This document shows positions 52,817-64,000 of a stretch of 64,000 bases of DNA, in pieces (position 1 is the first letter of the stretch; every line of letters starts with the position of its first letter). The DNA is taken from NCBI RefSeq assembly GCF_000974785.1, contig NZ_BBWV01000001.1, positions 806,001 through 870,000 of the forward strand, given 5' to 3'. A program made the translations under genes and the position numbers. The notes under the pieces are model-generated. The model searched no databases. It worked only from the letters and a program-made list of their open reading frames with translations, and had not been told where the DNA came from. This DNA is from Flavihumibacter petaseus NBRC 106054. Its GTDB lineage: Bacteria > Bacteroidota > Bacteroidia > Chitinophagales > Chitinophagaceae.

Positions 52817-54271
52817 TCAGAAATTATAGAGATAGGAAACAAGTGCCGCCACAGTAAAAGTGGTGGCACTTGTTTTTCCGGGAGTACCCAGCAGCACATT
52901 GCTGTCTTTGGGATCGTCAAAATTGACCACTTGCTGATAATCGTTGGACTTACCGTAAGACAATAGGAGACCCGCTCTCAGGTTAAACTTTTTCTTCAGC
53001 AGGTTAGCGCCTATCTGTGCATGATAAATATTAATATCGGAAACATTGACTTTGTAGCCATCACGGTTGCCGAACAGGTTATCTGTTGCATACGAGAAAT
53101 CGGTGCGTAAGGAAACGTAACCGCGGATTTTTTCTTTAAGGTCAAAACTGCATCCGATACCGAAATTCATCACGGCCTGCCGGGCATCATGGAATCGCAG
53201 CATCTGCGTGGTGTTGCGCGCCGCGGTATCCGGGCGGATAAATGCCTCATTTCTTGGCGTTACCACGTTATAGTCATCCACTTTACCAAAATATTCAGAA
53301 GCCAGGTAGAGTTGACCCTTTTCAAAATCCCAGGTATAACCAGCTGCGATACTAACGGGCATTTTCCATTTACTTTTCAGGTTGGTCTGCCGGGTGCTGG
53401 CCAGTACGTTCAGCGGAATGCCGGGAATCCACTGCAGATCGCTGATCTCTTCATCTGCCAGCAGCGTAGCTGACCCCATAAGGTTTACCAGCGGCGACGT
53501 TATCATCAGGCCAAATGCATGATGCCCGTTTGGCCGGTACGAAATACCACCTTTTATCCTGCCGCCAACAGACCAGGCATTGAGCTGATAATATGCTTCC
53601 ACTGATGAAACCGGTGGAAAAAGTATTGTATCACTGCCGGCATTCTGAAGGGCACGAAGTTTCGCATTGTTGATGTAATCAGTTTTATGCATCAACCCCT
53701 CTAGCGTCACCCCTACCGTCCAGTGATCACTCAGCGCCAGTCCTCCGCTCAGGATGAAGGATGTTTCAGAACTGCTGTTGTTTAAGGAATACTGCCCGAT
53801 AAACACTTCGTCACCGGGGGAATAACTGTCATTGAGCACATTGTCCGTCATTTCCCTGCGCTGTGTAGCACTGTAATTCAGTACCGGGCGGGTGGTGATG
53901 GCATATACCAGGCTGAAGGGAAGTTTTAATTTAAAAGGGATCGAGTGGGCGATCATTAAAGGAACGATAGTTCCGTGGCTGGATTTAAGATCAAGGCTGG
54001 TTCCCGCCCCGTTTTTAATGGTCACCTGCTGGATCTGGTACAAGGTACCGGAAATGGAAGCTGCATTGTTCCGGCTGTAAGCCAGGAGGGCAGGATTGAC
54101 AAACAGTACGCCGCTGTCGCCGTTATAGGCAACAACACCACCCGGCATAAAAAAGCTGCCGGGACCATACGCGGAGCTCCAGTAGTTGGCGTCCTGAGCG
54201 GCCGTGCTGAAATGGCTGATCAAAAGGATCAGCACCCCCAATATCTTCAGATAAGCAATTTTACAATGCAT
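52817..54271 (-). CDS. Outer-membrane protein, FadL/porin-like barrel
   Basis: This 484-residue protein has a signal peptide ending near STAAQ, a start of ANYWSSAYGPGSFFMPGGV, and many alternating beta strands ending ALVSYLYNF with terminal Phe. The N-terminal GDSGVLFVNPALL resembles the FadL/OmpP1-type start (plug region with NPA). This suggests a barrel for hydrophobic compounds, but similarity is only by general layout. It abuts the preceding gene tail to tail, with stop codons adjacent in TGATCA. Confidence 0.75.
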   Translation of the reverse strand: MHCKIAYLKILGVLILLISHFSTAAQDANYWSSAYGPGSFFMPGGVVAYNGDSGVLFVNPALLAYSRNNAASISGTLYQIQQVTIKNGAGTSLDLKSSHGTIVPLMIAHSIPFKLKLPFSLVYAITTRPVLNYSATQRREMTDNVLNDSYSPGDEVFIGQYSLNNSSSETSFILSGGLALSDHWTVGVTLEGLMHKTDYINNAKLRALQNAGSDTILFPPVSSVEAYYQLNAWSVGGRIKGGISYRPNGHHAFGLMITSPLVNLMGSATLLADEEISDLQWIPGIPLNVLASTRQTNLKSKWKMPVSIAAGYTWDFEKGQLYLASEYFGKVDDYNVVTPRNEAFIRPDTAARNTTQMLRFHDARQAVMNFGIGCSFDLKEKIRGYVSLRTDFSYATDNLFGNRDGYKVNVSDINIYHAQIGANLLKKKFNLRAGLLLSYGKSNDYQQVVNFDDPKDSNVLLGTPGKTSATTFTVAALVSYLYNF

Positions 54272-54433
54272 AATTGTCGCTGTAATTGGCAGTTAAGTTA
54301 AACCGACTTTATCAGATAATTGCCGGTGTGTTTGATTTCGGTGACCCGGGGGCACCGCGACATTTAAAAATCTTTCCCACAAGACAAGGAAGATATTAAA
54401 TTATTTATACTATGTTCGGCAACGAGAAAGCGC

Positions 54434-55867
54434 ATGGAGCCCCGAAACACCAACAACCGACTGCATTGGCTGGTCATTATTTCAACACTATTCATGGTTA
54501 TACCTGCCTCTGGCCAGGTAATAGTAACCGATAGCAGTAAAACAGTTGTTGATACGGCGCACCTTCGATTGGACACAGTCATTACCAAAAAGAGTTTCTG
54601 GCAAAGTCGTGCAGTACAGATCTCTATTGCTCCGGCTGCTTTCCTGACTGCTTCCTGGTTATTATGGGGTGAACGGAAGGAAATACGTGATTTCAGGAAT
54701 CGCTATATTCCCACCTTCCGGCATCACTACGACGACTACCTGCAGTACATGCCGGCTGTGGCGGTATTCGGCCTGAATGCAGCCGGTGTAAAAGGAAAGA
54801 ATACGCTCAAGCGGGCAAGTGTATCGTATGTTTTTTCGGCAGTGACCATGGCAATCCTGGTTAATACCGTAAAGTATACGGCAAAAGTGGAAAGGCCCGA
54901 CGGAACAGAACGCAATTCCTACCCTTCCGGTCATACGGCGAACTCATTCATGAATGCCACTTTTCTTCACAAGGAATATGGTCAGTACAGGAGTCCCCTT
55001 TACAGCGTTGCCGCATACGGTGCGGCGACGGTCACCGGCATCAGCAGGGAACTGAACAACCGGCATTGGGTATCTGATGTTCTGGCGGGAGCGGGCATCG
55101 GCATTCTGTCTACGGAGCTGGGCTATGTTTTTGCGGACAAGCTGTTCAAGGAAAAGGAAGCACACAAGCCGCTGCGACAGACGCCATTTCCCGTCACCAA
55201 CAAACCCAGCTTCCTGGAAATGCGGATCGGTTATGCGACAGCCCTGCACAGGGACATAACTGTGACCGATGAAAAAGTGAAAGCAAAAGATGGTTTTAAT
55301 CTTGGATTGCAGGGCGCCTGGTTCTTTCATAAAAATGTAGGTATTGGCGGGGAGTTTGCGTTTACGAGTTTTCCGATGAACAGTGACAATTTCAACCTTT
55401 CAGATTTGTCACCGGAGCTTGATTCCATAGCTGACGGAATTTATACCCAGCCAATGGGCGTACGGTACCTGGAGCTGGGCCCTTTCTTCAGTCTGCCGCT
55501 GACCCATAACTGGTTCATTTCGGCAAACTGGTGCGCAGGAGTGAGTTCGGGAGCACAGGGAAATATTCAGTTGCTGCTCAATGCTGAATGGAAAGAATTC
55601 CTGGAAAGAAACGATTATCCGTTTTACCGCTATAAACCGGAGCGTACGTTCAGCTGGTCGTGCGGAGCCGGCCTTGCAAAAAGAGTTTCCAGGAACGTTG
55701 CCATCAAGCTGTATGGGAAGTATTTTCATTCCCGCCACAATTTTGAGCTGGATATGATTGATGACCTTGATGACAAAGGCAATGTCGTTTACAAGTACCT
55801 GAGTTCGGAGATCATCGATTTTTCCCATATTGCCATCGGTCTCGGCCTCACGGCCTATCTCTGGTGA
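54434..55867 (+). CDS. PAP2 phosphatase fused to an outer-membrane-type barrel domain
   Basis: This 477-residue protein begins with a signal or anchor segment. It then has the PAP2 catalytic motifs: K-x6-RP (KYTAKVERP), PSGHT, and SR-x5-H-x3-D (SRELNNRHWVSDV). All are intact in residues about 150-230. The remaining about 220 residues are rich in aromatic beta strands and end GLGLTAYLW, like an outer-membrane barrel. The fold removes phosphate groups from lipids such as lipid A or undecaprenyl pyrophosphate. It precedes the Kdo8N genes on the same strand by 33 bases, so an LPS role (LpxE-like) is reasonable inference. Whether the barrel lies in the outer membrane is unproven. Confidence 0.88.
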   Translation: MEPRNTNNRLHWLVIISTLFMVIPASGQVIVTDSSKTVVDTAHLRLDTVITKKSFWQSRAVQISIAPAAFLTASWLLWGERKEIRDFRNRYIPTFRHHYDDYLQYMPAVAVFGLNAAGVKGKNTLKRASVSYVFSAVTMAILVNTVKYTAKVERPDGTERNSYPSGHTANSFMNATFLHKEYGQYRSPLYSVAAYGAATVTGISRELNNRHWVSDVLAGAGIGILSTELGYVFADKLFKEKEAHKPLRQTPFPVTNKPSFLEMRIGYATALHRDITVTDEKVKAKDGFNLGLQGAWFFHKNVGIGGEFAFTSFPMNSDNFNLSDLSPELDSIADGIYTQPMGVRYLELGPFFSLPLTHNWFISANWCAGVSSGAQGNIQLLLNAEWKEFLERNDYPFYRYKPERTFSWSCGAGLAKRVSRNVAIKLYGKYFHSRHNFELDMIDDLDDKGNVVYKYLSSEIIDFSHIAIGLGLTAYLW

Positions 55868-55875
55868 AACATCCC

Positions 55876-55883
55876 TAATTTTG
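55876..55883 (+). promoter_or_regulatory. -7 promoter box (TAATTTTG) of the kdnA operon
   Basis: TAATTTTG is a perfect TAnnTTTG, 17 bases before the ATG at 55901 and nine bases after the PAP2 stop codon. It lets the kdn genes be transcribed independently. Confidence 0.55.
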
Positions 55884-55900
55884 CCGGAAATTTTGCCTTT

Positions 55901-57091
55901 ATGCCCGGATTTGAACGCTTCGGCGAAGAAGAAAGAAAAGAAGTCAATGAGGTGCTGGAAACAGGCATCCTGATGCGATATGGCTTTGACGGCGCCCGCA
56001 AAGGCATCTGGAAAGCTAAGGAGCTGGAAGCAGCCATCAGCGATAAACTCAATGTAAAATATGTTCAGCTGACCTCCAGCGGAACAGCTGCACTGACCAC
56101 CGCAATGGCAGCATTGGGAATCGGCGCAGGCGACGAAGTGATCATGCCCTGTTTCACTTTTGTGGCGAGTTTCGAAGCTGTTCTTTCAGCAGGAGCCACT
56201 CCCGTGCTGGTAGACATTGATGAGAGCCTTACGCTCGACCCGGCAGCCGTGAAAGCAGCGATCACTCCCCATACGAAAGCTATTATGCCTGTTCATATGT
56301 GCGGCGCTATGGCTGACCTGGATGCGTTGCAGGACATTTGCAGGGAAAATGACCTGATTTTGCTTGAAGATGCCTGCCAGGCAATTGGCGGCAGCTATAA
56401 AGGAAAATACCTTGGCACGATCGGTGACGCAGGAACATTTTCCTTTGACTTTGTAAAGACGGTTACCTGTGCAGAAGGCGGTGCTGTTCTTACCAATAAT
56501 GAATCAGTATTCATTAAATCTGACGGATTCTCCGATCACGGGCATGACCACCTCGGTGCTGACCGTGGTGCCGATCTTCATCCGTTTCTCGGATACAATT
56601 TCCGTATTTCGGAGTTGCATGCTGCAGTAGGTCTCGCCCAGTGGCGCAAGCTGGATACCTTTCTGGAAATACAACGCAACACAAAGAAAAAACTGAAAGC
56701 CTCTTTGCAGGATATTCCACAGGTGAGTTTCCGGAAGATTCATGATGAAGCAGGTGACAGCGCCACTTTCCTCGAGATCTTTCTACCGGATCAAACAACA
56801 GCAGCAAAAGCCGCAGCAGCCATGAAAGCAAGCGGTCTTCCCAGCTTTTACTATTTTGATAATAACTGGCACTATTTCCGCAAATGGGACCACTTCAAAA
56901 ACGGTATTGCCCTTTCTCCCTTTGCGCCGGCGCTCCGGGATTATCTCAGACAATATGAGGATAAAACCTTCCCGGTGTCTGACGCCATTATCAACCGCTG
57001 CATCTGCATGCTGATCAACCTTAACTGGTCTGAAGAAGATATAGCTGACAAAGCATACAAACTGAAAGCAGCCATTCAATCTGCCATATGA
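55901..57091 (+). CDS. kdnA: DegT/DnrJ/EryC1 family aminotransferase, probable KdnA (8-amino-Kdo transaminase)
   Basis: This 396-residue PLP enzyme of the sugar aminotransferase family has the PLP lysine at Lys186 in FSFDFVKTVTCAEGGAV. The conserved EDACQAIGGSYKG binding segment precedes it. It is followed, with overlap or short spacing, by kdsB and an iron-containing alcohol dehydrogenase. That trio is the known Kdo8N pathway: KdnB oxidises the C8 hydroxyl of Kdo and KdnA transaminates the aldehyde to 8-amino-3,8-dideoxy-Kdo. The name rests on this context plus family, so other sugar aminotransfer reactions are possible. Its stop overlaps kdsB by four bases (ATGA). Confidence 0.82.
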   Translation: MPGFERFGEEERKEVNEVLETGILMRYGFDGARKGIWKAKELEAAISDKLNVKYVQLTSSGTAALTTAMAALGIGAGDEVIMPCFTFVASFEAVLSAGATPVLVDIDESLTLDPAAVKAAITPHTKAIMPVHMCGAMADLDALQDICRENDLILLEDACQAIGGSYKGKYLGTIGDAGTFSFDFVKTVTCAEGGAVLTNNESVFIKSDGFSDHGHDHLGADRGADLHPFLGYNFRISELHAAVGLAQWRKLDTFLEIQRNTKKKLKASLQDIPQVSFRKIHDEAGDSATFLEIFLPDQTTAAKAAAAMKASGLPSFYYFDNNWHYFRKWDHFKNGIALSPFAPALRDYLRQYEDKTFPVSDAIINRCICMLINLNWSEEDIADKAYKLKAAIQSAI

Positions 57092-57813
57092 AAACAATTG
57101 CGTTGATACCCGCCCGTTATGCAGCTACCCGATTCCCGGGAAAAATGCTGGCTGACCTTGCCGGAAAGTCGGTGATCCTGCGAACATATGAAGCAGCGGT
57201 CAGTACCGGCCTGTTTGATGATGTTGCCGTGGTATGTGATCACGACCTGATCTATAACGAAATCGTATCGAATGGCGGCAAAGCCATCCGCAGTAAAAAG
57301 GAACATGAATGCGGTACAGACCGGATTGCTGAAGCGGCTGCGGAGATGGATGCTGACATCGTTGTAAATGTTCAGGGCGACGAACCTTTTACGAAAAGGG
57401 CACCGCTTGAAAAACTGCTGCAGGTATTTCAGGGTCCTGCCGGCGAATCGGTAGAGGTCGCCTCGCTCATGCAGGTACTTACCGATCCCGGATCTATCAG
57501 CAATACGAATTTCGTAAAGGTTGCCATCGATCTTAACGGCAATGCATTATTCTTTTCCCGCTCACCCATCCCCTATCATCGTAATCAGGAAGTTAAACCC
57601 GTCTATTACGAACATATCGGTGTATACGCTTTTCGAAAAAAAACGCTGATCGATTTTACGGCATTGCCGGTCAGTCCGCTGGAAGCCGCAGAAAAAATCG
57701 AGTGCCTCAGGTATCTTGAAAACGGTATCCGGATGAAGATGGTGGTAACTGATTATATGGGCGTGGAGATTGACACGCCTGAAGATCTGGAAAAAGCAAC
57801 ACGGTTATTATAA
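57088..57813 (+). CDS. kdsB: 3-deoxy-manno-octulosonate cytidylyltransferase (Kdo or Kdo8N activating)
   Basis: This 241-residue enzyme links CMP to Kdo, the last soluble step before transfer to lipid A. The nucleotide motif is IPARYAATRFPGKML, and QGDEPF and PVSPLEAAEKIECLRYLENG follow. The length matches KdsB. Its position between the probable kdnA and kdnB suggests it may act on 8-amino-Kdo, as with the Shewanella homologue, but specificity cannot be read from sequence. A four-base overlap with kdnA indicates coupled translation. Confidence 0.94.
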   Translation: MKTIALIPARYAATRFPGKMLADLAGKSVILRTYEAAVSTGLFDDVAVVCDHDLIYNEIVSNGGKAIRSKKEHECGTDRIAEAAAEMDADIVVNVQGDEPFTKRAPLEKLLQVFQGPAGESVEVASLMQVLTDPGSISNTNFVKVAIDLNGNALFFSRSPIPYHRNQEVKPVYYEHIGVYAFRKKTLIDFTALPVSPLEAAEKIECLRYLENGIRMKMVVTDYMGVEIDTPEDLEKATRLL

Positions 57814-57833
57814 GCGAACAGAAAACAACGGTT

Positions 57834-58910
57834 ATGAAATTCAGAAACTTTAAGTTGACCGGTTATGTAGTGTATGGCAATGGTTCCTTCGATCAGCTGG
57901 GCGAGATCATCGCACCCAAGCGGAAGGACAATGCCCCAATGATATTCTTCGTTGATGAGTATTTCCGCGACAAACCCGATTTCCTGAACAGGATACCCCT
58001 GGAGGGCCAGGATAAGATCGTGATCATCGACGTAACACACGAACCCAAAACCACCTATGTTGACAAACTGCGCGATGAACTGACCGCAGCGTTCGGAACT
58101 GTATCGGGCATTATTGGTATCGGTGGCGGTTCAGTGATGGATATGGCCAAGGCTGTTTCCCTGATGATGTCCAATCCGGGATCTTCTGCTGACTACCAGG
58201 GATGGGACCTGGTAAAGGTTCCGGGCGTTTATAAAGTGGGCGTGCCCACTATTTCCGGAACAGGTGCCGAAGTCAGCCGTACCTGTGTACTGACCGGTCC
58301 CACGCGCAAACTTGGCATGAATTCCGACTATACAGTATACGACCAGATCCTCCTGGATCCTTCACTTACTGCCAGCGTGCCGGTAAATCAGCGTTTCTAT
58401 ACAGCGATGGACTGTTATATCCATTGCGTGGAATCACTGACAGGTACCTATCTCAATGCATTCAGCAAATCTTACGGTGAAAAAGCACAGGAGCTTTGCG
58501 AAGAGATCTTTCTTCAAAAAAACAACTGGGATTCAGATTCAGATGAAAAACTGATGATGGCATCCTATGCAGGCGGCATGAGTATCGCCTATTCCCAGGT
58601 TGGCGTAGCACACGCGGTCAGCTATGGTCTGTCCTACCTGCTCGGGACCAAACACGGGATTGGTAACTGTATCGTTTTTGACAAGCTGGAAGAATACTAT
58701 CCGGAAGGAGTGGCGAAGTTTAAGGAAATGGTGAAAAAACACAATATTGACATCCCCCAGCATATCACCAAAGGATTGACTGATGCGCAGTTCGACACCA
58801 TGATCAACGTGTCGCTCGGCATGGCTCCCCTCTGGGAAAACGCCCTGGGTAAAGACTGGAAAGAGAAGATCGATGCAAAGAAACTGAGAGCGCTTTACGA
58901 GCGGCTCTGA
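57834..58910 (+). CDS. kdnB: Iron-containing alcohol dehydrogenase family, probable KdnB (Kdo 8-oxidase)
   Basis: This 358-residue dehydrogenase has GGGSVMDMAKA for NAD binding (residues about 98-108). The metal histidines lie in CYIHCVESLTG and VAHAVSYGLSYLLGTKHGIGN. The family is metal-dependent (iron or zinc). The Kdo 8-oxidase KdnB belongs here. It follows kdsB by 20 bases and precedes a terminator, so kdnA-kdsB-kdnB looks like a complete unit. A dehydroquinate-synthase-like or glycerol dehydrogenase role is the alternative, less likely in this context. Confidence 0.82.
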   Translation: MKFRNFKLTGYVVYGNGSFDQLGEIIAPKRKDNAPMIFFVDEYFRDKPDFLNRIPLEGQDKIVIIDVTHEPKTTYVDKLRDELTAAFGTVSGIIGIGGGSVMDMAKAVSLMMSNPGSSADYQGWDLVKVPGVYKVGVPTISGTGAEVSRTCVLTGPTRKLGMNSDYTVYDQILLDPSLTASVPVNQRFYTAMDCYIHCVESLTGTYLNAFSKSYGEKAQELCEEIFLQKNNWDSDSDEKLMMASYAGGMSIAYSQVGVAHAVSYGLSYLLGTKHGIGNCIVFDKLEEYYPEGVAKFKEMVKKHNIDIPQHITKGLTDAQFDTMINVSLGMAPLWENALGKDWKEKIDAKKLRALYERL

Positions 58911-58929
58911 GCTGTTTCGGGAAGTTTAC

Positions 58930-58957
58930 AGGCCGGGAATGATCCCGGCCTTTTTTT
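58930..58957 (+). terminator. Terminator after kdnB
   Basis: AGGCCGGGA (58930-58938) pairs with TCCCGGCCT (58943-58951) around ATGA, with seven T from 58951 to 58957. It closes the kdn operon. Confidence 0.9.
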
Positions 58958-59062
58958 AGCCGTTAACCCTCCCTTCTCGCCCTACCCATTAACCCCGGAG
59001 CCAGCTGATTAACGAATAGGAACATGGTGACAATTATTACCGGAAAAACAATTCGCGGGAAC

Positions 59063-59070
59063 TAATTTTG
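59063..59070 (+). promoter_or_regulatory. -7 promoter box (TAATTTTG) upstream of a small ORF
   Basis: TAATTTTG matches TAnnTTTG exactly and lies eight bases before the ATG of a 44-codon frame, and 197 bases before the ABC exporter start. Confidence 0.5.
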
Positions 59071-59078
59071 CAGCATCA

Positions 59079-59213
59079 ATGCCCACCATGCAATCATTTA
59101 AATTATTTATATGTAGAGCACATATACGTTTTCCGCTGAGGATCAGCAGGAATGAGACCGAATTCATGAAACAGTACGGTAAAAGGTTCCTGATAACTGC
59201 AATAAACCGGTAA
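59079..59213 (+). CDS. Candidate small basic protein, 44 residues
   Basis: The frame starts with ATG at 59079 (an internal ATG at 59088 is also possible) and stops at TAA 59211-59213. The product begins MPTMQSFKLFICRAH and is rich in Arg and Lys (RFPLRISRNE, KQYGKRF). The perfect -7 box placed eight bases upstream is the same layout as at several real genes here. No family is recognised, and the AT-rich 5' end and short length leave chance as a real option. Confidence 0.35.
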   Translation: MPTMQSFKLFICRAHIRFPLRISRNETEFMKQYGKRFLITAINR

Positions 59214-59267
59214 ATCGTGACCCCCATACAACTTATTCCTCCCGCAGATTGTCAATGTTGCTAGATT

Positions 59268-61094
59268 ATGAAGACCTATTTCAGATTATTGTCGTTCGCC
59301 CGACCGATTGAGAAGTTTGCAATTCCCTACATATTGTTCACTTTACTGGCCGTGATTTTCAGCACCCTTAACCTGGCGCTGGTAGCTCCGTTGCTTACAA
59401 CCATCTTTAATCAGAATGCCCATCCAGAGCAGCTGGTTAAGCCCGAGCATGCCCTGGATATTTTTAAGTGGTTTAATTACTATGCCGGATTGGCTAACAG
59501 TCGTTTTGGGGCAACCCGCACGTTGCAGCTTGTTTGTGCAACAATAGTATTGTCTGTTGTGATCGGTAATTTTTTTCGTTACCTGTCAGACCGCATCATG
59601 GAGAATCTTCGTATTCATACCTTGTTGAACCTCCGCCGGTCGGTATTCAACAATGTAATGAAATTACACCTCGGCTATTTTAATAACGAAAGGAAAGGAG
59701 ATATCATCAGTAAAATTGCATCTGATGTTCAGGTGGTGCAATATTCCGTTACCGGTACCCTTCAGGTCTTGTTCAAAGAACCACTGACCCTCCTTACCTA
59801 CCTGGTAATGTTGTTTATCATCTCTTATAAGCTGACACTGGTGTCTATGCTGATTATTCCTGTCTCGGCTTTTGTTATCTCAAAAATCGTCAAAAAACTG
59901 AAGGAGCAGGCCTCGGCGTCACAGACCTCCTATGGCATGATGATCAGCTACCTGGATGAAGCTTTGAATGGCATGCGGATCATCAAGGCATTCAATGCAG
60001 TCAATTTTATCACGAACCGTTTCGAGAACGAAAACCAACGCTATTCAACAATCATACGCTCTATGGCGAAGCGCCAGCAACTGGCATCGCCTGTATCAGA
60101 GTCACTCGGTGTCATGATGGTGGCAGGTATTGTTCTGTATGGCGGGTCACTTGTTCTGGCCGGTAAGGGGCTCAACGGTGCGAACTTTATCGCGTATATC
60201 GCTTTGTTCTCACAGATCATGCGGCCGGCAAAAGCCATCTCTCAATCATTCAGCAATATCCATTCAGGCATTGCAGCCGGAGAGCGTGTACTGGGTCTGA
60301 TTGATGAAAAACCTCAGATCGTTGATGCGCCTGATGCTGCAGCCGTTTCCACTTTTAACCATGAAATAAAATTCAGTGGTGTCAATTTCTCTTATGGCGA
60401 TAAAAAAGTACTTCAGGATGTTTCCTTCACTATTCCGAAAGGACAGTCTGTAGCGTTGGTGGGTCCTTCAGGCGGAGGAAAGTCTACCTTGATGGACCTG
60501 CTGCCGAAATTCATAGAACCACAATCCGGCGCCATAACCATCGACGGAAAAGATATCCGTAAAGTAACTGCGGACTCCCTGCGTTCACTGATGGGAGTTG
60601 TGAACCAGGAATCCATCCTGTTCAATGACACGATCTTCAACAACATCGCATTTGCAAAACCCAATGCAACCCAGGCTGAGGTGGAAGCTGCTGCACGCAT
60701 TGCCAATGCGCACAATTTTATAGAAGCGACCGAAGCCGGTTACCAGACAAACATCGGCGACAAGGGGATCAAACTTTCCGGCGGACAAAGGCAGCGGATC
60801 TGTATTGCGCGTGCCGTACTGAGCAATCCGCCCATCATGTTATTGGATGAAGCGACATCGGCCCTTGATACCGAGTCTGAAAAAATGGTGCAGGATGCGC
60901 TTAACAAACTGATGCTGAACCGTACGTCACTGGTTATCGCGCACCGCCTGAGTACAATTCAGAATGCAGATAAGATTGTGGTACTGGACCAGGGTCGCAT
61001 TGTTGAACAGGGCAGTCACCTGGAATTGCTGGAACAGAACGGGTTATACAGGAAGCTGATTGACATGCAAACATTTGGGGTACTGGTTTCTTAA
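59268..61094 (+). CDS. MsbA-like ABC exporter (permease-ATPase)
   Basis: This 608-residue half-transporter has six membrane segments (residues about 15-320) and a C-terminal ATPase with Walker A GPSGGGKSTLM, signature LSGGQRQRICIARA, Walker B IMLLDEATSALD and an H-loop in VIAHRLST. The dimeric type is used for lipid A, lipid-linked glycans or peptides. Its place between Kdo8N genes and glycosyltransferases favours lipid A or lipooligosaccharide flipping, which is inference. A glycosyltransferase gene follows eight bases after its stop. Confidence 0.93.
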   Translation: MKTYFRLLSFARPIEKFAIPYILFTLLAVIFSTLNLALVAPLLTTIFNQNAHPEQLVKPEHALDIFKWFNYYAGLANSRFGATRTLQLVCATIVLSVVIGNFFRYLSDRIMENLRIHTLLNLRRSVFNNVMKLHLGYFNNERKGDIISKIASDVQVVQYSVTGTLQVLFKEPLTLLTYLVMLFIISYKLTLVSMLIIPVSAFVISKIVKKLKEQASASQTSYGMMISYLDEALNGMRIIKAFNAVNFITNRFENENQRYSTIIRSMAKRQQLASPVSESLGVMMVAGIVLYGGSLVLAGKGLNGANFIAYIALFSQIMRPAKAISQSFSNIHSGIAAGERVLGLIDEKPQIVDAPDAAAVSTFNHEIKFSGVNFSYGDKKVLQDVSFTIPKGQSVALVGPSGGGKSTLMDLLPKFIEPQSGAITIDGKDIRKVTADSLRSLMGVVNQESILFNDTIFNNIAFAKPNATQAEVEAAARIANAHNFIEATEAGYQTNIGDKGIKLSGGQRQRICIARAVLSNPPIMLLDEATSALDTESEKMVQDALNKLMLNRTSLVIAHRLSTIQNADKIVVLDQGRIVEQGSHLELLEQNGLYRKLIDMQTFGVLVS

Positions 61095-61102
61095 ACTACA
61101 CT

Positions 61103-61942
61103 ATGAAAAGCAGTCTGATCATCAGTACTTATAACCGGCCTGACGCGTTGGAAGTAAGTCTTCTCAGTGCAATCGATCAAACCGTGCTGCCAGATGAAAT
61201 CATTGTGGCAGATGACGGATCAACGGCGGAGACGGCGGCAACCGTTGCTGCGTTCGCGAAACAATCCAAAGTTCCTGTAAAACATATCTGGCAGGAAGAT
61301 ACCGGCTTCCGGTTATCAAGGATCAGGAATCTTGCTATTGCCGCTGCATCCGGCGATTATATTATCCAGATAGACGGTGACATTGTTTTGCATCCGCGCT
61401 TTATTGAAGATCACCTGAAGTTCGCCCGTCCGCGCACTTTCGTAAGGGCCAGCAGGATCTATCTGAATGATGAACTTACAGACACAGTGATACGCACTAA
61501 AAAAACCCGGATCAATATTTTCAATAAGGGCGTTACCAACACGCTTAGTGCCATCCGGTTTCCCCTCATCTGGCCATTGTTTGAGACCAGCTACAAAAAC
61601 AAGGGTGACGAGCGCTGGGAAATTCATGGTTGCAATATGGCATTCTGGAAAGAAGATATTGTGTCTGTGAATGGCTATAATGAAGCGTTCAGCGGTTGGG
61701 GCATGGAGGATAAGGAACTGGTTGTTCGCCTGATCAATGCGGGCTTCGAAAAGCGGTTCCTGAAGGCCGGTGGCGTTGCATTTCACCTGATCCATCCTGT
61801 TAATGCAAAAGAGCGGCTGCAGGAAAATGAAAGGTTGCTGAAGGAAGCTATTGATGCGCGTACTGCCTGGTGTGAAAATGGTGTATCACAACATTTTGAA
61901 TCGCCAGAAAGCGAAACTACTCAGCAGGACTATCAGCACTAG
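61103..61942 (+). CDS. Family 2 glycosyltransferase
   Basis: This 279-residue GT-A enzyme starts SLIISTYNRPDALEVSL. It has ADDGS (nucleotide binding), QIDGDIVLHP (DxD-type metal site, around residue 94) and GWGMEDKELVVRLINAG near residue 197, a galactosyltransferase-like C-terminal motif. It lacks membrane segments. It would transfer a sugar to a lipid or core oligosaccharide in the cytoplasm. It is in an operon with the MsbA-like gene. Its last 57 bases overlap the next gene on the opposite strand. Confidence 0.92.
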   Translation: MKSSLIISTYNRPDALEVSLLSAIDQTVLPDEIIVADDGSTAETAATVAAFAKQSKVPVKHIWQEDTGFRLSRIRNLAIAAASGDYIIQIDGDIVLHPRFIEDHLKFARPRTFVRASRIYLNDELTDTVIRTKKTRINIFNKGVTNTLSAIRFPLIWPLFETSYKNKGDERWEIHGCNMAFWKEDIVSVNGYNEAFSGWGMEDKELVVRLINAGFEKRFLKAGGVAFHLIHPVNAKERLQENERLLKEAIDARTAWCENGVSQHFESPESETTQQDYQH

Positions 61943-63037
61943 CTTGATTATCTTCCATCGGTTCAGGCGGAAGGGACTGGGGTTCTCTTTCCTGAAGCCC
62001 ATATCCAGCCGGCGGGCAAATTGCCGTGGTGGAAACACAGCCAGGCTTTCCAGCAGGTACCCGCATTCCCAGCTGAATTTCGTCCACCATAACGACAGTG
62101 CTACCTGCGGCGAAAAGGTTTTACCTACTATGATGGCCTTTATATAATTCACCAGGAGCTCAGCCATTAATACTGCTCCCATGAAGAGCATGACCAACAG
62201 GGCGCTGTCGTTCATGGCTGCTACCGGCAGAACGAGCAACAGCAGCAATAAAGTTTCGGGGGTATTTGTAAAATCAAGGTAGGTGTACCGGTTTAACGGA
62301 TTTTTGCGGGCTACCTGGCAGGCACCCCGGCCGTAGCGGAAGAGGCGACCCGTCTGCAGCTGACCATTATTCCACCACGGGTGATGAACGATCGCTCCCG
62401 GAACTGAATGATATTTCTCCTGCAGTGCCAGGCTGTTGCGTACCAGGAAATCCATGTCCTCGCCACTCCATCGGAGTGCAGTATCAAATTGCCTGTTCTG
62501 CAGTTTTTCACGGTTCAGGAGGAGATTGGCTGTAGGTGCCCATCGTTGTAATGGTTGATGTAACGCGGCAAGGAAGTGACCTGTGGTGCCGTTGATCTCC
62601 AGCGCACGGGTGACGGCATTGAATGATTCCGGAAAGTCAGTAACACCGGCAAAACCGATCGCATCAGGATGTTGCATGATGGCAGCCGCGTAAGCAAAAA
62701 GCAAATCTTTTTCAGGAATGATGTCATCGTCAAGAAAGAGCAGCCATTTACCATTTCCCGATTCCAGCGCAGTGTTGCGGGCGGCCCCTATGCCCAGGTT
62801 CCTGGGATGAATGATCAGGTCGATCGTGTCAGCATCCCTGAGCCGGAATATCGATTCAGGAATGTCAACATCCGGGTTATCTGATATAACGCATACCCTT
62901 GATCGGAATGGCGAAGGAGTTTCAAGCGCAGCAATGGCAAGTAACACCCGCTCATCGAGGCGGAAAGAAGGAACGGCGATATCGATCAGTAAAGCGTCAG
63001 GCACGGCAGCAAATATAGCGCTAACTTCGGGCTGCAT
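61886..63037 (-). CDS. Family 2 glycosyltransferase with C-terminal membrane segments
   Basis: From the ATG at 63037 the protein has 383 residues: a GT-A domain with DIAVPSFRLDERVL, then RDADTIDLIIHPRNLGIGAARN and LFLDDDIIPEKD (DxD-type). Hydrophobic segments follow near residues 285-340 (LLLLLLVLPVAAM and VMLFMGAVLMAELLV). The open frame goes back to 63172, but that part is antisense to the methyltransferase gene and lacks family sequence. The start codon shares CATG with that gene's start. The end overlaps the neighbouring glycosyltransferase gene by 57 bases. The acceptor is unknown. Confidence 0.82.
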   Translation of the reverse strand: MQPEVSAIFAAVPDALLIDIAVPSFRLDERVLLAIAALETPSPFRSRVCVISDNPDVDIPESIFRLRDADTIDLIIHPRNLGIGAARNTALESGNGKWLLFLDDDIIPEKDLLFAYAAAIMQHPDAIGFAGVTDFPESFNAVTRALEINGTTGHFLAALHQPLQRWAPTANLLLNREKLQNRQFDTALRWSGEDMDFLVRNSLALQEKYHSVPGAIVHHPWWNNGQLQTGRLFRYGRGACQVARKNPLNRYTYLDFTNTPETLLLLLLVLPVAAMNDSALLVMLFMGAVLMAELLVNYIKAIIVGKTFSPQVALSLWWTKFSWECGYLLESLAVFPPRQFARRLDMGFRKENPSPFRLNRWKIIKLVLIVLLSSFAFWRFKML

Positions 63038-63563
63038 GACAAGCGAAGCAGCTATTAGCCTGTTACAACATGAAGGTCGCGGTATCAGCCACGGGAGCAA
63101 TTGGATTGAACTGGGTGCGGGAAATGGTGTATTCACCAGGGCACTGGCAAACTGCCTGAAAGGAAACAGCAAGATACTGGCGATTGACCGGTCGATTTCC
63201 GGAGCGCTGCGTGAGATTCAGCAGCACGGTGTAGCGATAGAAACGTTGCAGGGCGATTTCAATACCATGTCACTTCCGGAAATGGCTGCTGACGGTATTC
63301 TCATTGCCAATGCCATTCATTATGTAGTTGACAAGAAAGGTTTTCTGAGCAGGTGGGCGGACTGCCTGCAGCCCGGTGGTGTTTTCTGCCTGGTGGAATA
63401 TGACACCTCACTGGCGAACCAGTGGGTGCCATATCCGGTACCGGCAGCAGACATAGGAAAGGTTTTCGAAGGCATAGGGTTCGGTAAAACCGATTTTATC
63501 AACAGGGTAGCTTCAAGATATCATAAGGGTGGAATCTATTCAGTACTGGCCAGGCGCGGCTGA
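63036..63563 (+). CDS. Class I SAM-dependent methyltransferase
   Basis: This 175-residue protein starts at the ATG at 63036, MTSEAAISLLQHEG. Motif I is WIELGAGNGVFTRAL, and a later acidic loop, DGILIANAIHYV and LQPGGVFCLVEYD follow (motif post-I and strand 5). The length fits a small Rossmann methyltransferase. A near-consensus -7 box (TAACTTCG, 63022-63029) lies six bases upstream. The start shares bases with the divergent glycosyltransferase start. The substrate is unknown. Its end overlaps creD by 28 bases. Confidence 0.85.
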   Translation: MTSEAAISLLQHEGRGISHGSNWIELGAGNGVFTRALANCLKGNSKILAIDRSISGALREIQQHGVAIETLQGDFNTMSLPEMAADGILIANAIHYVVDKKGFLSRWADCLQPGGVFCLVEYDTSLANQWVPYPVPAADIGKVFEGIGFGKTDFINRVASRYHKGGIYSVLARRG

Positions 63564-64000
63564 TCCTGCTGCTGTTCATTTCCGTACCAGTTAACCTTTC
63601 TGCTTCCGTACATCGCCAGGCCAAGAATCAGGAAGAGTCCGATGCTGCCGATCAGTAATGCCGTGTCTTCAAGGCGGACCAGCACAAAGATGAATCCATA
63701 CAGCATCGTGATAACCGCTCCAAGTAATGCGGCCGTCCGGAAAGATTTGAAATGTCCCCTGACATACCAGGTAATCAGAACGATCGTTGCAGTTGCAGCG
63801 ATGAGATAGGCCCAGTCAAAAAACAGGAATTCGCTGATCGACAATAGCAGTGTATAAAATATTGTCAGGGCAAGTCCGATCAATACATATTGCACAGGGT
63901 GAACAGGTTTTTTCAGGATCTGTTCCATGATGAAAAATAAGGAGAACGTGAGACCTATTACCAGGATCGCGTACTTGACACTTCTTTCTGTTTTGGCGTA
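63536..64000 (-). CDS. creD: CreD family inner-membrane protein (partial, 5' end outside the window)
   Basis: The frame remains open to the right edge, beyond the first ATG at 63928. In-frame residues upstream read YAKTERSVKYAILVI, typical CreD sequence just before the membrane part. The visible C-terminal part of about 150 residues has several membrane segments, with HPVQYVLIGLALTIFYTLLLSISE, LEDTALLIGSIGLFLIL and the tail MYGSRKVNWYG. CreD belongs to the creBCD regulon in enterobacteria and affects envelope integrity and beta-lactam response. In Bacteroidota the role is less clear. Its end overlaps the methyltransferase gene. Confidence 0.93.
   Translation of the reverse strand, partial: YAKTERSVKYAILVIGLTFSLFFIMEQILKKPVHPVQYVLIGLALTIFYTLLLSISEFLFFDWAYLIAATATIVLITWYVRGHFKSFRTAALLGAVITMLYGFIFVLVRLEDTALLIGSIGLFLILGLAMYGSRKVNWYGNEQQQDQPRLASTE

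What the first reader, a model, noticed from the sequence alone, without database searches (positions are those of the whole stretch)
55901..58910. Likely 8-amino-Kdo (Kdo8N) operon kdnA-kdsB-kdnB in a Bacteroidota genome
A sugar aminotransferase, a Kdo cytidylyltransferase and an iron-type alcohol dehydrogenase lie together with overlaps, followed by a terminator. This is the gene set known for Kdo8N, an inner-core sugar variant first described in Shewanella. The flanking PAP2 phosphatase, MsbA-like exporter and glycosyltransferases fit lipid A remodelling.
Basis: partly seen in the sequence, partly recalled or inferred. Interest (0 to 1): 0.6.

Follow-up and report, generated by a model that had tools for sequence, protein, structure and literature searches.

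The report
Amino-Kdo sugar operon in Bacteroidota
This Bacteroidota genome carries the three genes expected to make an aminated form of Kdo, the sugar that joins endotoxin to its lipid anchor, and one amino acid of the activating enzyme tracks, within its branch, whether a relative has the pathway, which points to a testable substrate switch.

Summary
The operon is real. Its outer genes are orthologues of the solved Shewanella enzymes KdnA (5k8b: 464 bits, next 174; 53% identity) and KdnB (5k8c: 441 bits, next after the two KdnB-like chains 82; 55%), with catalytic lysine and metal ligands kept. The middle gene is the only KdsB found in the genome; KdtA, KdsA and KdsC are present. Most likely Kdo8N replaces Kdo in the LPS; no chemistry was tested.

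Added here: (1) kdnA and kdnB travel together through Bacteroidota: 58 of 346 genomes of a class draw have both, 2 have kdnB alone, 0 kdnA alone, at the cut-offs used. Papers seen call Kdo8N a Shewanella trait. (2) In the KdsB clade of this operon, residue 227, two before the Mg-ligand Asp, is Glu in 16 of 16 genomes with kdnA+kdnB and Gly/Ala in 27 of 27 without, and Glu in 68 of 68 named loci. The genome with a decayed KdnB and no KdnA has Gly. I propose Glu227 as Kdo8N specificity switch.

Against: 11 kdn genomes read with other KdsB types have Cys, Pro or Ser there.

The parts
55901..57091 (+). kdnA: PLP-dependent aminotransferase, expected to turn 8-oxo-Kdo into Kdo8N
   Evidence: phmmer 5k8b 2.7e-138, 464.5 bits, next chain 174.6; 53% identity over 392 columns, Lys186 (PLP lysine by position in the family) in 32 of 32 aligned rows
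57088..57813 (+). kdsB: cytidylyltransferase, the only one found in the genome; expected CMP-Kdo8N synthetase
   Evidence: TIGR00466 172.5 bits over cut-off; one match in the whole genome; start overlaps the kdnA stop by 4 nt
57766..57768 (+). codon of KdsB Glu227 (GAG), proposed Kdo8N specificity residue; Asp229 (57772-57774) corresponds to E. coli Asp235, a ligand of the catalytic Mg
   Evidence: alignment with E. coli KdsB: win 227 = E. coli 233; association with kdnA+kdnB 16/16 against 0/27; Asp235/Asp100 as metal ligands from passages of PMC2901514
57834..58910 (+). kdnB: Fe-ADH-fold Kdo 8-oxidase
   Evidence: phmmer 5k8c 3e-131 and 3rf7 1.1e-128, next 82 bits; 55% identity over 354 columns; D193, H197, H260, H274 kept; only Fe-ADH match in the genome
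58930..58958 (+). intrinsic terminator candidate (9-bp stem, 4-nt loop, T run)
   Evidence: fold

Best explanation
kdnA-kdsB-kdnB is a Kdo8N operon. Free Kdo (from KdsA and KdsC, encoded elsewhere in the genome) is oxidised at C8 by KdnB, the aldehyde is aminated by KdnA, and KdsB activates the product as CMP-Kdo8N, which the single KdtA puts on lipid A. Because no other KdsB was found, Kdo8N probably replaces Kdo rather than adding to it, giving the inner core a positive charge. Within this KdsB clade Glu227, two residues before the Mg-ligand Asp229, probably helps to select the 8-ammonium sugar. Shown: orthology, gene order, single-copy KdsB, catalytic residues, and the Glu227 association. 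Inferred: all enzyme activities, the product in the LPS, and what Glu227 does.
For: Orthology and catalytic residues. One KdsB, one KdtA, and one KdsA and one KdsC over cut-off in a 99.7% complete genome. Triad within 300 bp in 37 of 80 named loci. Co-occurrence: KdnA (E<=1e-95) in 58 and KdnB (E<=1e-60) in 60 of 346 genomes, all 58 being among the 60; in a phylum draw of 296, 19 strong KdnA (386 bits or more) all among 22 KdnB genomes. KdsB clade: 49 of 92 rows, SH-aLRT 99, 40 with and 9 without KdnB. Residue 227: Glu 16/16 with kdnA+B, 0/27 without, the best of 241 columns; Glu in 68 of 68 named loci in which KdsB lies on the fetched stretch; a prediction written down beforehand for 8 newly fetched genomes held 8 of 8. 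G118, with no KdnA at E<=1e-70 and KdnB metal ligands reduced to DQRH, has Gly.
Against: No activity or LPS data. In 11 genomes with kdnA+kdnB but other KdsB types residue 227 is Cys (6), Pro (3) or Ser (2), never Glu, so Glu is not needed for every Kdo8N-type pathway, if these are one. In the class draw only 11 of the 58 kdnA+B genomes have a KdsB of this clade at E<=1e-68. On well-supported branches only 2 independent contrasts remain (p 0.5; 6 on the best tree), and many rows without kdn are of one genus. G118 was first labelled kdn+ on KdnB alone and moved after it proved the exception. The Shewanella KdsB sequence could not be reached.
Confidence: 0.85

Rival explanations
1. KdsB stays a Kdo enzyme or takes both sugars, so the LPS holds Kdo or a mixture, and Kdo8N is a minor or conditional form.
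For: KdsB scores over the general kdsB cut-off; specificity cannot be read from sequence alone; kdn genomes with other KdsB types lack Glu227.
Against: The KdsB is in the kdn operon and is the only one found; residue 227 tracks kdnA+B within the clade.
Confidence: 0.1
2. KdnA and KdnB act on another ulosonic acid or make an amino sugar for another glycan, and their place beside kdsB is incidental.
For: A KdnB of 43-45% identity sits in other polysaccharide clusters in G145 and G169, so the KdnB family can sit in another context.
Against: Best solved relatives are the Kdo8N enzymes with a large gap; near-exact co-occurrence of A and B; the order with kdsB is kept in 37 of 80 named loci.
Confidence: 0.04
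3. Glu227 does not touch the sugar but changes the Mg site, as the aspartate two before the conserved Asp does in CMP-sialic acid synthetase (Asp209/Asp211).
For: PMC2901514 (passages): in the Neisseria enzyme Asp209, two before Asp211, is a metal ligand and D209A abolishes activity.
Against: It does not by itself explain why the residue tracks kdnA+B; KdsB already has its second Asp (E. coli Asp100).
Confidence: 0.25
4. The Glu227 association is shared descent plus chance, without function.
For: Only 2 independent contrasts on starred branches.
Against: Both traits need 6 changes on the best tree, in step; fresh prediction 8 of 8; genomes G029 and G088 of one genus (g19) differ in both.
Confidence: 0.15

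Closest known systems
Kdo8N pathway of Shewanella oneidensis (KdnB, KdnA; Gattis et al. 2013, not held, recalled; structures 5k8b and 5k8c)
   Same: Orthologous KdnA and KdnB with catalytic residues kept; kdsB in the same cluster (the Shewanella order is recalled from accession numbering, not checked).
Canonical Kdo activation, E. coli KdsB
   Same: Same family and Mg-ligand aspartates.
   Different: 35% identity; E. coli has Gly at the 227 position and its locus has no kdnA/kdnB.
CMP-sialic acid synthetase (NeuA) of Neisseria meningitidis
   Same: An acidic residue two before the conserved Asp (passages of PMC2901514).
   Different: Other substrate; there it is a metal ligand. The positional match is my inference from residue numbers, not an alignment made here.

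Membership tests
Kdo8N operon (Shewanella type) | KdnA orthologue with PLP lysine | tested here: met
Kdo8N operon (Shewanella type) | KdnB orthologue with Asp/His/His/His metal ligands | tested here: met
Kdo8N operon (Shewanella type) | KdsB linked to kdnA and kdnB | tested here: met
Kdo8N operon (Shewanella type) | Kdo supply and transfer genes: kdsA, kdsC, kdtA (kdsD not searched) | tested here: met
Kdo8N operon (Shewanella type) | Oxidation of Kdo at C8 and amination | not testable with these tools
   needs enzymes
Kdo8N operon (Shewanella type) | 8-amino-Kdo in the LPS | not testable with these tools
   needs mass spectrometry or NMR
CMP-Kdo8N synthetase | Preference for Kdo8N over Kdo | not testable with these tools
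   only the Glu227 association speaks to it
CMP-Kdo8N synthetase | Glu227 also in the Shewanella KdsB | not tested

The most novel reading that the evidence does not exclude
Residue 227 of KdsB is a natural one-residue switch between CMP-Kdo and CMP-Kdo8N synthesis: Glu pairs with the 8-ammonium group, and lineages that lose kdnA/kdnB go back to Gly or Ala. Kdo8N, described as a Shewanella trait, would then be an ordinary and repeatedly lost inner-core sugar of Bacteroidota, readable from genome sequence in this KdsB clade.
Probability: 0.5. Interest if true: 0.65.

Novelty: new member of a known kind. Interest (0 to 1): 0.5.

Why it matters
Kdo sits between lipid A and the rest of the LPS in most Gram-negative bacteria. 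If many soil and water Bacteroidota carry an amino group there, their outer membranes have an extra fixed positive charge next to lipid A, which in Shewanella is linked to resistance to polymyxin and bile salts (recalled from the 2013 abstract). It would correct the view of Kdo8N as a Shewanella hallmark and give a single, cheap residue test of how KdsB tells the two sugars apart.

Tried and rejected
Flanking genes as support: PAP2 in 1 of 80 and the MsbA-like gene in 0 of 80 named loci, so I do not count them as part of the system.

Glu227 as a universal mark of Kdo8N: rejected; 11 other kdnA+B genomes whose KdsB I could read have Cys 6, Pro 3, Ser 2. Of 39 such flanks fetched (G535 apart) only 7 held a KdsB, so most of this lineage is unread.

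KdnA-like proteins of 238-288 bits in 42 of 296 genomes are not counted as KdnA: 41 are of family f17, mostly genus g49; in the 10 of them fetched, a different Fe-ADH (26-30% to KdnB) lies beside the gene. The other is G131.

Mobile origin: KdnB had no match in plasmids (E<=1e-30) and only weak Fe-ADH matches in phages. No Rfam family in 54000-64000.

Literature: nothing on kdnA/kdnB or Kdo8N in Bacteroidota was found, an open-licence library only; I judged listings and passages. PMC4052302 (passages) says in its Shewanella section that Kdo8N was confirmed in 'other bacterial species'; which ones I did not follow.

Full report
Observation.

Identity. KdnA matches 5k8b (named 8-amino-3,8-dideoxy-alpha-D-manno-octulosonate transaminase) at 464.5 bits, next chain 174.6. 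KdnB matches 5k8c (3-deoxy-alpha-D-manno-octulosonate 8-oxidase) at 441 bits and 3rf7 at 432.6; the next chain has 82. Identity is 53% over 392 and 55% over 354 columns; Lys186 of KdnA is kept in 32 of 32 rows and the KdnB ligands D193/H197/H260/H274 in 35 of 36. NCBIfam has no KdnA or KdnB model that scores over its cut-off here, which is why these proteins hit other aminotransferase and dehydrogenase models weakly. KdsB passes the kdsB cut-off. The role of KdnB is also stated in a passage of PMC5125639.

Genome. G000 has 5.69 Mb in 22 contigs, 99.74% complete. It has one Fe-ADH match, one KdsB, one KdtA, two KdsA-family matches of which one is over cut-off and two KdsC-family matches of which one is over cut-off. 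KdsD was not searched. So the only KdsB found is the one in the kdn operon.

Spread. Of the 80, 39 hold KdnA, KdsB and KdnB, 29 KdsB and KdnB, 12 KdnB alone (some are cut short); 37 have the triad within 300 bp. In a phylum draw KdnB (E<=1e-40) is in 22 of 296, strong KdnA (386 bits or more) in 19 of these, KdsB (E<=1e-15) in 221 of 296; of the 22 KdnB genomes 20 have one KdsB, G145 two and G169 three. In a class draw, which shares genomes with the first, KdnB is in 60 and KdnA in 58 of 346, all 58 within the 60; G118 and G474 have KdnB alone.

Two lineages. In the KdnA and KdnB trees the four genomes G091, G146, G190 and G249, with kdnB and kdnA side by side, form one group (SH-aLRT 100 in both), apart from the Chitinophagaceae and f5 rows; Shewanella falls nearer to that group, with support of 88-91 and a long-branch warning for KdnB. 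Their KdsB also lie together with those of other families, outside the KdsB clade of the window, although G091 is of the window's own family. So the kdn genes go with more than one KdsB lineage.

KdsB clade of the window. It holds 49 of 92 rows (SH-aLRT 99), 40 labelled kdn+ (by KdnB) and 9 kdn-. In the f5 family the order is kdsB, a ~230 aa gene, kdnB; in the kdn- genomes G021, G053 and G057 kdsB keeps neighbours seen in the kdn+ loci but lacks both, as expected if they were lost.

Residue 227. Comparing clade columns, residue 227 was Glu in 39 of 40 kdn+ rows and Gly or Ala in 9 of 9 kdn- rows of the same clade. The one exception, G118, has no KdnA at E<=1e-70 and a KdnB of 43% identity whose ligands read D, Q, R, H; I therefore counted it as lacking kdnA+B from then on, a relabelling made after seeing it. 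I wrote down a prediction for 8 newly fetched genomes and it held 8 of 8: G535 (kdn+) Glu, seven kdn- Gly or Ala. With ten more kdn- genomes of genus g18 the count is 16 of 16 against 0 of 27. These 43 are all the clade members I fetched from genome handles, not all that exist. Column 227 is the best of 241 (Fisher p 3.8e-12, not corrected for kinship; next 3.6e-7). Both traits need 6 changes on the best tree; 6 independent pairs on all branches, only 2 on starred branches (p 0.5). All 68 named loci in which KdsB lies on the fetched stretch have Glu.

Where it lies. Residue 229 aligns with E. coli Asp235, which with Asp100 holds the catalytic Mg (PMC2901514, passages; the same site in the Aquifex enzyme is D219 and D95, PMC3149649, sections 6 and 7 in part). 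Residue 227 is thus in the active site, where the Kdo-binding and nucleotide-binding domains meet. That its side chain reaches C8 is inferred; I had no coordinates.

Limits. In 11 kdnA+B genomes with other KdsB types the residue is Cys 6, Pro 3, Ser 2. Among 37 kdn- rows outside the clade it is Ser 17, Gly 8, Ala 7, Pro 5, so Cys may mark a second solution, but this is unproven.

What is known. Papers seen as passages describe Kdo8N as a hallmark of Shewanella (PMC6357163) and as setting Shewanella LPS apart from others known (PMC3210612); the Shewanella section of PMC4052302 speaks of other species without my tracing them. The pathway is therefore known; its spread in Bacteroidota and the residue are what I add, within the searches named in Tried and rejected.

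Noticed in passing
L219:6616-8933; L237:6202-8506 (G028, G169, family f17): A KdnA-like aminotransferase (38-39%) beside an Fe-ADH that is only 29% identical to KdnB; in L219 with an LPG_synthase_TM protein and a GT2 near by. Possibly a different alcohol-to-amine conversion on a surface lipid or glycan.
   Followed up: partly
L206:6959-7666, L207, L208, L209, L210, L218, L238: In f5-family loci a 233-237 aa gene lies between kdsB and kdnB; it is a HAD hydrolase in L206 (Pfam), and the L238 copy is 64% identical to it; it is missing with kdnB at kdsB of G021, G053 and G057. A possible Kdo-8-phosphate phosphatase.
   Followed up: partly
L216:7729-8841, L217:7565-8677 (G169, G145): A KdnB of 43-45% identity in an O-antigen-like cluster with a PseG-like protein and an LA_1612-family protein, no strong KdnA, and more than one KdsB in the genome.
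   Followed up: partly
L104, L193, L218 (G118): Decaying kdn locus: KdnB with two of four metal ligands changed, no KdnA found, KdsB with Gly at 227.
   Followed up: yes
L052: A contig titled Beijerinckiaceae carries a KdnB (75%) and KdsB (64%) like those of Chitinophagaceae: probably a mislabelled or mixed bin.
   Followed up: no
window:63536-63928: Minus-strand 130-aa ORF matching only the last 115 positions or so of CreD (profile 314-428): a truncated or split CreD.
   Followed up: no
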